In this document: piece by piece, positions 15,000 to 19,413 of the stretch | Numbering within the stretch: position 1 is the first letter of the stretch | Layout: every line of letters begins with the position of its first letter | NCBI GenBank assembly: GCA_002243285.1 | Contig: CP022585.1 | Location: 2,406,641 to 2,470,640 of the forward strand | From: Candidatus Fluviicola riflensis | GTDB lineage: Bacteria > Bacteroidota > Bacteroidia > Flavobacteriales_D > Crocinitomicaceae | Length of the DNA: 64,000 nucleotides | Direction: 5' to 3' | The notes under the pieces: model-generated | The model's database searches: none | What the model was told of the DNA's origin: nothing | Seen by the model: only the letters and a program-made list of their open reading frames with translations | Translations under genes and position numbers: made by a program

Positions 15000-15022
15000 T
15001 TAGTATCGTAATCCAATACTAA
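15000..15022 (+). promoter_or_regulatory. Candidate HigA operator overlapping the higB start
   Basis: TTAGTAT (15000-15006) and ATACTAA (15016-15022) are a perfect 7-bp inverted repeat with a 9-nt spacer. The right arm overlaps the A of the higB start codon. Type II antitoxins such as HigA commonly bind a dyad overlapping the operon promoter or start, which suggests autorepression. Confidence 0.6.
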
Positions 15023-15303
15023 TGATAAAGACCTTTGACGATAAAGAATCTGAAAAAATTTGGATCGGAATTCGGTCAAAAAAATTGCCCAACGAAATTC
15101 AGGATGTTGCGCGTCGGAAACTGAGAATGATCAATAACGCTCAGGACATAAATGATCTCAGAATTCCACCCGCAAACAGACTGGAGAAATTGAGAGGAGA
15201 TCTTCAAGATTATTACAGCATTCGCGTTAACAATCAATGGAGAATCATTTTTAAATGGATCAATAATGATGCTTACGAAATTAATATAGTGGATTACCAT
15301 TAA
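15022..15303 (+). CDS. higB: HigB-type toxin of a HigBA module
   Basis: The 93-residue protein is a RelE/HigB-fold toxin. It has the characteristic series of motifs: SEKIWIGIRSKKLPNEIQDVARRKLRMINNA, then DLRIPPANRLEKLRGDLQDYYSIRVNNQWRIIFKW and a closing IVDYH. The loops around L-x-G...Y-x-I-R...W-R-I-x-F are the HigB/GraT-like active surface that cleaves ribosome-bound mRNA. It is followed 10 nt later by a HigA-type antitoxin, the toxin-first order typical of HigBA. Subfamily (HigB versus GraT) is not separable by eye. Confidence 0.9.
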   Translation: MIKTFDDKESEKIWIGIRSKKLPNEIQDVARRKLRMINNAQDINDLRIPPANRLEKLRGDLQDYYSIRVNNQWRIIFKWINNDAYEINIVDYH

Positions 15304-15313
15304 ATGTACAATC

Positions 15314-15613
15314 ATGGAAAAGCTCAAAAATATTCATCCGGGAGAAATACTCATAGAGGAATTCTTGATCCCATTGGAAATTTCGGCCTACCGTTTGGCC
15401 AAGGAAACCTTTCTTCCTCAAACACGTATTTCCGAAATAGTAAAAGGTAATCGCAGAATTACAGCTGATACTGCTTTACGATTTTCCAAATTTTTCGGAA
15501 CCACTGCCAAATTTTGGTTAGGACTTCAGGATGATTATGATCTGGAAGAAGAGAAAAATCAGAAAGGGAAAGAAATCAATAATATCAAGCCTCTGGAAGG
15601 AAACGCTGCGTAA
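15314..15613 (+). CDS. higA: HigA-type antitoxin
   Basis: The 99-residue protein has the HigA signature near the start: NIHPGEILIEEFLIPLEISAYRLAKET, then an XRE-type helix-turn-helix (PQTRISEIVKGNRRITADTALRFSKFFGTTAKFWLGLQDDYDL). The C-terminal 25 residues are charged and low in structure, which suits toxin binding. It neutralises HigB and represses the operon, likely through the dyad at 15000-15022. It is immediately downstream of higB in a two-gene operon. Confidence 0.92.
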   Translation: MEKLKNIHPGEILIEEFLIPLEISAYRLAKETFLPQTRISEIVKGNRRITADTALRFSKFFGTTAKFWLGLQDDYDLEEEKNQKGKEINNIKPLEGNAA

Positions 15614-17133: not shown

Positions 17134-17141
17134 AAATCAAG

Positions 17142-17177
17142 CAAATAAATCCTCTGCGTTTACAGAGGATTTATTTG
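17142..17177 (+). terminator. Intrinsic terminator after the NNP-repeat protein
   Basis: A perfect 15-bp stem (CAAATAAATCCTCTG at 17142-17156; CAGAGGATTTATTTG at 17163-17177) with a 6-nt loop CGTTTA is followed by TTTCTTTT. The hairpin sits 9 nt after the stop codon. The AT-rich lower stem means it could act in both directions. Confidence 0.85.
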
Positions 17178-17206
17178 TTTCTTTTATTTCAACAATATCT
17201 ACCAAA

Positions 17207-17464: not shown

Positions 17465-17565
17465 CTTTCCGTGTTAGTCTACTTCACTTTTGCGTTTAAT
17501 TAATCGGAATTTGCTGAATAGCCAAGCTATTTCTACATTTAACATCGATTAAAACAAAACACATC

Positions 17566-17925
17566 ATGCTCACCTCCGTTCATCCAAAGCTTCCGATGCG
17601 CAATAAAGCGATTACCCGCGATTATTACCTGAATCAATTGGGGTTTGAAGAATTTGGCAATACCGGTTTTGAAGATTACCTGATGGTCCAAAAAGACAAT
17701 ATCCAGCTTCATTTTTTTCTGTTTAAGGAACTGGACCCAAAAGAAAATTACGGACAGATATATATTCGCACTGAAGTGATCGACGAATTATATCAATCTA
17801 TGCTGGATAGAAAAGTCGCCATTCATCCGAACGGGGCGTTGCAGTTGAAACCCTGGGGACAAAAGGAGTTTTCGCTGCTCGATCCGGATTATAATTTGTT
17901 GACCTTCGGGCAAAGCATACAATGA
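17566..17925 (+). CDS. VOC-superfamily (bleomycin-resistance-like) protein
   Basis: The 119-residue protein has one vicinal oxygen chelate domain: PKLPMRNKAITRDYYLNQLGFEEF, DYLMVQKDNIQLHFFLFKEL, YIRTEVIDELYQSML and KPWGQKEFSLLDPDYNLLTFGQ, matching the beta-alpha-beta-beta-beta order of bleomycin-resistance proteins. They work as dimers that bind a ligand or metal; substrate unknown. Its stop overlaps the start of the GNAT gene as ATGA (17922-17925), so it heads a three-gene operon. Confidence 0.88.
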   Translation: MLTSVHPKLPMRNKAITRDYYLNQLGFEEFGNTGFEDYLMVQKDNIQLHFFLFKELDPKENYGQIYIRTEVIDELYQSMLDRKVAIHPNGALQLKPWGQKEFSLLDPDYNLLTFGQSIQ

Positions 17926-18341
17926 ACGGCCTCGAAATAAATACCGACAAGAACCGCCTGGATCTCCACTTCATTCACGGATTCATTTCAAACTCCTATT
18001 GGGGAAAGGATCGAACAATTGACGCCATGCAGATGTGTATTGACAACTCGTTGAATTTCGGTGTTTACCTTTCAGACAAACAAATCGGTTACGCGCGGGT
18101 GGTCACTGATTATGCGCAATTCGCCTACATCATGGATGTATTTATTGATGAAAACCACCGTGATAAAGGTTATTCTGTCGCGTTGATGAAATTCATCATG
18201 GAATGTGAAGCTTTGAAGAACATCAAGGTTTGGCGGCTTGCCACTGCCGATGCCCATGGCCTGTACAAGAAATTCGGGTTTGAAGCGTTAGAAAAACCGG
18301 AGAACCTGATGGAGTTGATCATTAAAAACCGGTTGAAATGA
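17922..18341 (+). CDS. GNAT-family N-acetyltransferase
   Basis: The 139-residue protein is a single GNAT domain: a beta start (FGVYLSDKQIGYARVVTDYAQFAYIMDVFIDENHRDKGYSVALMKFIM) that includes the acetyl-CoA-binding R/Q-x-x-G-x-G/A-like loop as RDKGYS, then the LATADAHGLYKKFGFEAL C-terminal motif. The substrate is unknown. It overlaps both neighbours by ATGA (with VOC at 17922-17925 and the next lipoprotein at 18338-18341), so the three are translationally coupled. Confidence 0.88.
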   Translation: MNGLEINTDKNRLDLHFIHGFISNSYWGKDRTIDAMQMCIDNSLNFGVYLSDKQIGYARVVTDYAQFAYIMDVFIDENHRDKGYSVALMKFIMECEALKNIKVWRLATADAHGLYKKFGFEALEKPENLMELIIKNRLK

Positions 18342-18874
18342 AAATAGTATATCTGATAATACTTCTGCAGGTTTTTTCCGGTTGTGATTTCATCAATGGT
18401 TTATCAGAGATTAAAGAAGATTTTGAGACCGAAAAGCTGGATTCTTATACCATGGAACCACTGAATCATTACATGAAAAAGTACGAAATCGATTACAAAA
18501 ATAAAGTCCCGAAACGCTTTGAAGTGATTGAATTCTCTTTTGAAGACGCGTATTTCGACACTGCCGATTTTTATTCGAGTAACCAACATGTAAGCAGGGT
18601 AATTGGCCTTCCGGGCGAGGAAGTCGAACTGAAGAAAGGCGTCGTTTACATCAATGGAAAAATACTGAAAGAACCGTTTTTAGCCGATTCCATCCGATCG
18701 AATGACGATTTTGAAAAGATGAAAATTGAAGAAGACAACTACTTTGTGATGGTCGACAAACGAAAAATGATTTTCCAGGATACAATAACCGGTGTTGAGT
18801 ATAAAGCCTATGATTCAAGGATCATTGGAACAATACCCGGGTACCGGATTGTTGGGACTACTGATTTAAAATAG
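18338..18874 (+). CDS. Lipoprotein of the S26 signal-peptidase fold lacking catalytic Ser and Lys
   Basis: The 178-residue product has a lipobox (LQVFSGC, Cys16) rather than a transmembrane anchor. It carries the type I signal peptidase signature boxes: box B as SYTMEPL (residues 36-42), box C as FEVIEFSF, box D as HVSRVIGLPGEEV (84-95) with INGKILKEPFL, and box E-like NYFVMVDKR...DSRIIGTI. In active enzymes, box B has Ser before M-x-P and box D has Lys before R-x-x-G-L-P-G. Here these are Thr38 and Ser86, so the Ser/Lys dyad is absent. It is probably a noncatalytic S26-like envelope lipoprotein, coupled to the GNAT gene. Confidence 0.75.
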   Translation: MKIVYLIILLQVFSGCDFINGLSEIKEDFETEKLDSYTMEPLNHYMKKYEIDYKNKVPKRFEVIEFSFEDAYFDTADFYSSNQHVSRVIGLPGEEVELKKGVVYINGKILKEPFLADSIRSNDDFEKMKIEEDNYFVMVDKRKMIFQDTITGVEYKAYDSRIIGTIPGYRIVGTTDLK

Positions 18875-18906: not shown

Positions 18907-19413
18907 ATGAAATCAACATTGTTGTTCATTGGACTGGTGTTCATTGTACTGGCCTGTAACAATTCTGCTAAAGAGCCTGATATTAAAACACCCCCCGATT
19001 CAAATCAATCCGATAATAACACATTTGAAAATCCGCGCACGTATGTTCGTAAATATGCACTTTGGGAATATCAATACGACTCTATTAGCGGGCGTTCCAC
19101 CCCTGTTAAATTGCGATCAGTTAACAAAGATACCCTGAGTGCCAAAAAGATTGTGGCAATCGTTAATAAAACCTGGCCGAATGTACAGGTAACGCATCTG
19201 CGAACTTCAAAAGACACTATCTATCTTTCCATTCCAAAAAGCGATGTATTGACGCAGCAAATGGGAACTCTCGGCGCCGACGAATTTATGATTTCAACCA
19301 CTTATTCATTTACGGAATTAAATGGTATTCGCTATGTTTCATTTGATTTTCAGCCTGGCGATCATGCAAATCCGGGGGTTTACAGTAGAAATTACTGGAT
19401 TAAACACCGGTAA
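18907..19413 (+). CDS. Hypothetical lipoprotein
   Basis: The 168-residue protein begins with a lipoprotein signal (MKSTLLFIGLVFIVLACNN, Cys17) followed by a polar linker (KEPDIKTPPDSNQSDNN). The mature region (about 40-168) is mixed alpha/beta, with TWPNVQVTHLRTSKDTIYLSI and a closing GIRYVSFDFQPGDHANPG...YWIKH. No named domain is seen. It lies 32 nt after the S26-like gene and may be the last member of that operon. Confidence 0.65.
   Translation: MKSTLLFIGLVFIVLACNNSAKEPDIKTPPDSNQSDNNTFENPRTYVRKYALWEYQYDSISGRSTPVKLRSVNKDTLSAKKIVAIVNKTWPNVQVTHLRTSKDTIYLSIPKSDVLTQQMGTLGADEFMISTTYSFTELNGIRYVSFDFQPGDHANPGVYSRNYWIKHR

What the first reader, a model, noticed from the sequence alone, without database searches (positions are those of the whole stretch)
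18338..18874. S26 signal-peptidase-fold lipoprotein without the Ser/Lys dyad
The sequence shows all S26 boxes (TMEPL, FEVIEFSF, RVIGLPGEEV, INGK...EPF, VDKR, DSRIIGTI), but the nucleophile Ser is Thr38 and the general-base Lys is Ser86. It has a lipobox instead of the transmembrane anchor, and is translationally coupled (ATGA twice) to a VOC protein and a GNAT. From signal peptidase biochemistry, both positions are needed for cleavage. I infer a noncatalytic envelope protein derived from a signal peptidase: it could bind signal-like peptides or be a dedicated regulator of LepB.
Basis: partly seen in the sequence, partly recalled or inferred. Interest (0 to 1): 0.65.

Follow-up and report, generated by a model that had tools for sequence, protein, structure and literature searches.

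The report
Lipid-anchored signal peptidase without active site
A Bacteroidota bacterium carries a lipid-anchored protein built like the enzyme that trims export signals off proteins but with its cutting machinery replaced, so it probably binds peptides instead of cutting them; similar cutter-less proteins turn up in several Bacteroidota lineages.

Summary
Window 18338-18874 (+) encodes a 178-aa protein with significant similarity to type I signal peptidase (Pfam PF10502 67 bits, above cut-off; TIGR02227 54.7 bits, above cut-off), and the predicted fold matches only signal peptidases, including the non-catalytic SipA. Alignments with E. coli LepB, SpsB and about 50 other S26 proteins put Thr38 at the nucleophile and Ser86 at the general base. 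Two further active-site positions are also altered: Gly272 is Val139 and Ser278 is Ala157. The only ortholog found (Fluviicola sp. XM-24bin1, 53% identical) has the same four replacements and a lipobox, and the segment around the lost Lys is the best conserved part (16/16 residues). It is therefore a maintained, probably non-catalytic lipoprotein. Other Bacteroidota families encode similar S26 lipoproteins with base positions His, Asn, Gln, Cys or Phe, never Lys, and always Ala at 278. The VOC-GNAT linkage is not conserved, and the gene is rare (2 of 240 genomes of its family), which argues against a dedicated LepB regulator. Best model: a lipid-anchored peptide-binding adaptor or chaperone, as proposed for SipA. 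New variant of a known kind; the function is inferred, not shown.

The parts
18338..18874 (+). S26-fold (type I signal peptidase-like) lipoprotein lacking the Ser/Lys dyad, 178 aa
   Evidence: PF10502 67.2 bits and TIGR02227 54.7 bits, both above cut-off; fold match to SPase I and SipA; alignments
18338..18385 (+). Signal peptide with lipobox VFSGC, Cys16 as lipidation site (codon 18383-18385)
   Evidence: Sequence inspection; Cys16 conserved in ortholog L007; no signal-peptide predictor was available
18449..18451 (+). Thr38, at the position of the nucleophile Ser90 of E. coli LepB
   Evidence: Thr also in the ortholog
18566..18613 (+). Residues 77-92 (DFYSSNQHVSRVIGLP): box D strand, 16/16 identical in the ortholog; best conserved segment
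   Evidence: longest identical run; 0.3% of permutations reach it
18587..18589 (+). His84, two residues before the lost base (aligned with E. coli Tyr143)
18593..18595 (+). Ser86, at the position of the general base Lys145
18752..18754 (+). Val139, at the position of invariant Gly272
18806..18808 (+). Ala157, at the position of Ser278 (supports Lys145 in LepB)
17922..18341 (+). GNAT acetyltransferase, overlaps the S26 start by ATGA; linkage not conserved
   Evidence: Pfam Acetyltransf_7 46 bits; of 14 genus genomes 11 carry it, and the 10 other than the window's have no S26 or VOC beside it
17566..17925 (+). VOC/glyoxalase-fold protein, overlaps GNAT by ATGA; likely first gene of the transcription unit
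   Evidence: Glyoxalase_2 E=1.8e-4, below cut-off

Best explanation
A lipid-anchored, non-catalytic homologue of type I signal peptidase. The catalytic core fold and the substrate-binding edge strand (box D) are kept. The nucleophile (Ser to Thr), the general base (Lys to Ser), the Gly that makes room for the Lys (Gly to Val) and the Ser that supports it (Ser to Ala) are replaced. It is exported as a prolipoprotein, lipidated on Cys16, and held at an envelope membrane. There it most likely uses the old substrate groove to bind an extended peptide segment of a client envelope protein, as an adaptor or chaperone, without cutting it. Shown: similarity and predicted fold, the replacements, and their conservation in the ortholog. 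Inferred from motif only: lipidation. Inferred by analogy with SipA: peptide binding and the adaptor role. Confidence is about 0.85 that it is non-catalytic and about 0.45 that it is a peptide-binding adaptor.
For: S26 family scores are above curated cut-offs. AlphaFold models (pLDDT 67, then 79 with a deeper alignment) match only SPase I structures, ranks 1-26, with SipA 4n31 at ranks 6-7 at TM 0.67-0.68 on its own length. All four changed positions are identical in the ortholog at 53% overall identity, and the longest identical run (77-92) surrounds the lost base. In the 57-protein set all 48 proteins with Lys have Ser278, while 7 of 9 without Lys have Ala there (Fisher p=1.4e-7, relatedness not corrected). 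That is the pattern expected when the Lys-supporting network is dismantled. SipA precedent (PMC4049620): dyad replaced by Asp/Gly, Gly272 to Asn, Ser278 to Arg, cleft kept, no peptidase activity, essential for pilus assembly. Six other S26 lipoproteins from two other Bacteroidota families never have Lys.
Against: No client, partner or conserved neighbour gene was found. Only two members of this exact family are known, in different neighbourhoods. The region holding Thr38 (residues 31-50) is modelled at pLDDT about 65 only. A cleft-occluding mutation in SipA had no effect on pilus assembly (PMC4049620), so even there the groove is not proven to be the working surface. In the six relatives from the other two families the nucleophile Ser is mostly kept (5 of 6), which non-catalytic drift would not require.
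Confidence: 0.55

Rival explanations
1. It is still a protease, using Thr38 with His84 (two residues before the lost Lys) or Ser86 as a new catalytic pair, comparable to the Ser/His dyad of ER-type signal peptidases.
For: Thr38 and His84 are both conserved in the ortholog. Related lipoproteins in G587 have Ser with His exactly at the Lys position, an ER-like arrangement that could be active.
Against: His84 is not at the base position. SipA has a Lys at the same offset (Lys83), described as solvent exposed, and a double mutant with Asp48 kept function (PMC4049620). Other lipoprotein S26s have Phe, Cys, Asn or Gln as base. Gly272 is Val and Ser278 is Ala here.
Confidence: 0.1
2. It is a regulator of, or decoy for, the housekeeping LepB: it competes for signal peptides or dimerises with LepB.
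For: The same genome encodes a LepB (281 aa frame) and a 649-aa S26 protein. The fold is that of LepB.
Against: 238 of 240 family genomes, and all 13 congeners searched, lack it. No linkage to lepB in either genome.
Confidence: 0.1
3. It is a decaying accessory gene with no present role.
For: Very patchy presence; active site lost; GC of 37% against 42% for the window.
Against: Intact ORF in both genomes; third codon positions differ twice as often as first and second (65% against 33% and 30%); a 16-residue identical block around the former active site; lipobox kept in both.
Confidence: 0.12
4. It is a decoy that soaks up signal-peptidase inhibitors (arylomycin-type lipopeptides), giving resistance.
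For: The groove strand is kept without catalysis; the neighbouring VOC and GNAT folds resemble drug-binding and drug-modifying families, weakly and below cut-offs.
Against: The GNAT is found across the genus without S26, and the VOC/GNAT pair is absent beside the ortholog. Known arylomycin contacts include the catalytic Ser and Lys (own knowledge).
Confidence: 0.04

Closest known systems
Type I signal peptidase, LepB/SPase I (MEROPS S26A; Pfam PF10502, TIGR02227)
   Same: Fold, boxes B, D and E in order, RVIGLPGE and DSR motifs; family scores above cut-offs
   Different: No Ser/Lys dyad, no Gly272, no Ser278; lipobox instead of transmembrane anchor; 12-column insert between box E VDKR and DSR
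SipA/LepA of Streptococcus pyogenes pilus islands (PDB 4n31, 4k8w)
   Same: SPase fold with both catalytic residues and the same two supporting positions replaced; Foldseek ranks 6-7
   Different: Different replacements (Asp/Gly); Gram-positive, sits in a pilus cluster with sortase; no pilin or sortase near the window gene
SpsA of Staphylococcus aureus
   Same: SPase I homologue that lacks two conserved catalytic residues and is dispensable (PMC12445088)
   Different: Gram-positive homologue; no lipobox reported in what was read
S26 lipoproteins of other Bacteroidota families (G587 a/b, G814, G824, G829, G843; found here)
   Same: Short S26 domain after a lipobox-type N-terminus, no Lys, Ala at 278
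   Different: 27-32% identical for the four aligned; nucleophile Ser (Ala in G824); GDNT kept; the tree does not decide whether they share one origin with the window protein

Membership tests
Type I signal peptidase (S26A), as a catalytic enzyme | S26 fold/profile | tested here: met
   Profiles above cut-off; Foldseek top 26 hits are SPase I or SipA
Type I signal peptidase (S26A), as a catalytic enzyme | Nucleophile Ser in box B (SxMxP) | tested here: not met
   Thr38; same in the ortholog
Type I signal peptidase (S26A), as a catalytic enzyme | General base Lys (or His in ER-type) in box D | tested here: not met
   Ser86
Type I signal peptidase (S26A), as a catalytic enzyme | Gly272 and Ser278 that accommodate and support the Lys | tested here: not met
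   Val139 and Ala157
Type I signal peptidase (S26A), as a catalytic enzyme | N-terminal transmembrane anchor | tested here: not met
   Single short N-terminal signal helix ending at lipobox Cys16; judged by inspection, no TM predictor available
Type I signal peptidase (S26A), as a catalytic enzyme | Cleavage of signal peptides | not testable with these tools
   Needs biochemistry
Non-catalytic SPase I homologues (SipA, SpsA kind) | SPase fold without a Ser/Lys dyad, conserved in orthologs | tested here: met
Non-catalytic SPase I homologues (SipA, SpsA kind) | Peptide-binding groove kept | tested here: inconclusive
   The box D edge strand is the most conserved segment; coordinates of the model were not available for a pocket analysis
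SipA proper | Gene in a pilus/sortase cluster | tested here: not met
   Neighbours are VOC, GNAT and a second lipoprotein; citrate synthase and FHA protein in the ortholog's genome
Bacterial lipoprotein | Lipobox and Cys | tested here: met
   VFSGC by inspection; LVSC in the ortholog; lipidation itself not tested

The most novel reading that the evidence does not exclude
Bacteroidota contain a so far undescribed class of lipid-anchored S26 proteins in which the signal-peptidase site has been converted, perhaps more than once, into a non-cleaving peptide receptor. The general-base position is free to vary (Ser, His, Asn, Gln, Cys, Phe; never Lys) while the groove is kept. The window protein is the member with the most thoroughly dismantled site.
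Probability: 0.35. Interest if true: 0.55.

Novelty: new variant of a known kind. Interest (0 to 1): 0.42.

Why it matters
The dead signal peptidases that I know of or found in the papers read are from Gram-positive bacteria (SipA, SpsA); SipA is essential for building pili although it cuts nothing. A lipid-anchored Gram-negative version with a conserved former active site would show that the signal-peptidase fold has been reused as a peptide-binding module in another envelope type. It gives a small soluble domain on which groove binding without cleavage can be tested directly. It is also a warning for annotation: both curated models (PF10502, TIGR02227 'signal peptidase I' equivalog) score it above cut-off, so automatic pipelines would call it an active LepB.

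Tried and rejected
(1) Conserved operon with VOC and GNAT: rejected; the other 10 congeners that have the GNAT have no VOC or S26 beside it, and the ortholog's neighbours differ. (2) Phage or plasmid origin: tblastn hits in phages and plasmids are ordinary SPases at 28-38% identity; no close relative in viral contigs. (3) One clade of all S26 lipoproteins: neither shown nor rejected (AU p=0.45 with six members; 16% of bootstrap trees with eight; long branches). (4) dN/dS: synonymous sites saturated, no estimate. (5) First fold model (pLDDT 67) was replaced by one from a deeper alignment (pLDDT 79). (6) Literature searches for S26 lipoproteins or dyad-less signal peptidases in Bacteroidetes returned nothing on point.

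Full report
WHAT IS THERE. Window 18338-18874 (+) is an intact 178-codon ORF starting with ATG. It scores 67.2 bits against Pfam Peptidase_S26 (cut-off 22.9) and 54.7 bits against NCBIfam TIGR02227 signal peptidase I (cut-off 47). Its only PDB sequence hits are type I signal peptidases. In its own genome the family search finds three S26 genes: a LepB-sized one (281-aa frame), a 649-aa one, and this one.

ACTIVE SITE. The local HMM matches do not reach the nucleophile, so I checked it by global alignment. In every alignment, Thr38 falls in the column of the nucleophile and Ser86 in the column of the general base. A profile built from an 11-sequence alignment places E. coli LepB SGSMMPT (Ser90) and DYIKRAVGLPGD (Lys145) on the same columns. 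Two further positions are also changed: the invariant Gly272 is Val139 and Ser278 is Ala157. According to the SipA paper, a side chain at 272 would clash with Lys145, and Ser278 is involved in stabilising Lys145 (PMC4049620). So the whole Lys-supporting network is gone. Conserved box D and DSR motifs remain.

FOLD. With 11 sequences AlphaFold gave pLDDT 67; with 19 sequences pLDDT 79, pTM 0.72. Foldseek hits 1-26 are all SPase I structures or SipA, with nothing else credible; SipA 4n31 ranks 6-7 with TM 0.67-0.68 on its own length.

ANCHOR. The N-terminus MKIVYLIILLQVFSGC is a lipoprotein-type signal with Cys16; the ortholog has LPLIAVIILVSC. No signal-peptide predictor was available; this is by inspection. 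Asp (Glu in the ortholog) follows the Cys. Which membrane it ends in is unknown.

RELATIVES. The genus of G052 (34 genomes) has it only there. Fluviicola belongs to Crocinitomicaceae, so the window genome is presumably of that family. The two proteins are 53% identical and share Thr38, Ser86, Val139, Ala157, His84 and the lipobox Cys. The longest identical run, residues 77-92 around the lost base, is reached in 0.3% of permutations. Codon positions differ by 33, 30 and 65%, as for a protein under selection; synonymous sites are saturated.

A WIDER PATTERN. Short S26 lipoproteins also occur elsewhere in Bacteroidota: two in G587 (Ser/His), G814 (Ser/Gln), G824 (Ala/Asn), G843 (Ser/Cys) and G829 (Ser/Phe). 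None has Lys, and all have Ala at 278. In the first 57-protein set, 48 of 48 with Lys have Ser278 and 7 of 9 without Lys have Ala (p=1.4e-7, relatedness not corrected); in the second set one viral-contig protein has Lys with Ala. Lipoboxes of G824 (AEGC) and G843 (FNAC) are weaker by the usual pattern. Membrane-anchored dyad-poor S26s also occur: G441 (Asn/Gly) and G407 (Asn/Gln) with multi-TM N-termini, G466 (Ser/Asp), and in the window's own family G031 (Asn before the Met, Ser at base). The six f48/f67 lipoproteins form a supported clade (97/100); whether the window pair joins them is undecided (AU p=0.45 in the six-member test, long branches).

CONTEXT. ATGA overlaps link VOC, GNAT and S26, as stated, and a second small lipoprotein follows 32 bases later with no terminator found between them. 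A Bacteroidetes-like promoter (TTTG, 20 nt, TACATTTA at 17510-17541) lies before the VOC gene; this is by eye only. The linkage is not conserved: of 14 genus genomes 11 have the GNAT, and the 10 other than the window's have no VOC or S26 beside it; in G052 the gene lies beside a membrane protein, an FHA protein and citrate synthase. The context therefore carries no functional information.

HOW IT PROBABLY WORKS. The best analogue is SipA: dyad Asp/Gly, Gly272 to Asn, Ser278 to Arg, cleft kept, no peptidase activity, essential for pilus polymerisation, proposed to act by binding a component at the cell surface (PMC4049620). By analogy I infer a lipid-anchored adaptor that binds a peptide in the old substrate groove. 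Limits of the analogy: a cleft-occluding mutation in SipA had no effect on assembly, and no client is known here. Residual catalysis by Thr38/His84 is unlikely: SipA has a Lys at the same offset whose mutation, together with that of the Asp at the nucleophile position, was silent. A LepB regulator is unlikely given the distribution. A relic is disfavoured by conservation.

VERDICT. Observation confirmed and strengthened (four positions, conserved in the ortholog). New variant of a known kind.

Noticed in passing
L056:5670-6152 and L056:7318-7803 (G587): Two nearby S26 lipoproteins with a Ser/His arrangement (GSMEP ... WCHRVVGLP), like ER and archaeal signal peptidases, in a bacterium; could be active enzymes on a lipid anchor.
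   Followed up: partly
L119:1444-2253 (G441) and L075 (G407): Multi-TM N-terminal domain (GLGQIYNGK-type) fused to an S26 domain with Asn/Gly or Asn/Gln at the dyad: a second dyad-less S26 architecture in Bacteroidota.
   Followed up: partly
L143:1438-2130 (G060) and L146:1132-1842 (G031): Membrane-anchored S26 proteins of the window's own family with Asn before the box B Met; one keeps Lys and the other has Ser at the base position.
   Followed up: no
window 18907-19413: Second small lipoprotein directly downstream, no family above cut-off (weak Germane-domain similarity, E=0.025); may be co-transcribed.
   Followed up: no
window 15022-15613: Adjacent small ORFs that look like a HigB/HigA-type toxin-antitoxin pair (by eye).
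   Followed up: no
window 17139-17180: Strong stem (18 pairs) with T-rich tails on both strands: likely bidirectional terminator upstream of the VOC-GNAT-S26 unit.
   Followed up: no
L079 (G522) and L067 (G727): Short canonical Ser/Lys SPases next to genes for a probable beta-propeller protein and a small thioredoxin-like or membrane protein, a possible conserved cassette.
   Followed up: no
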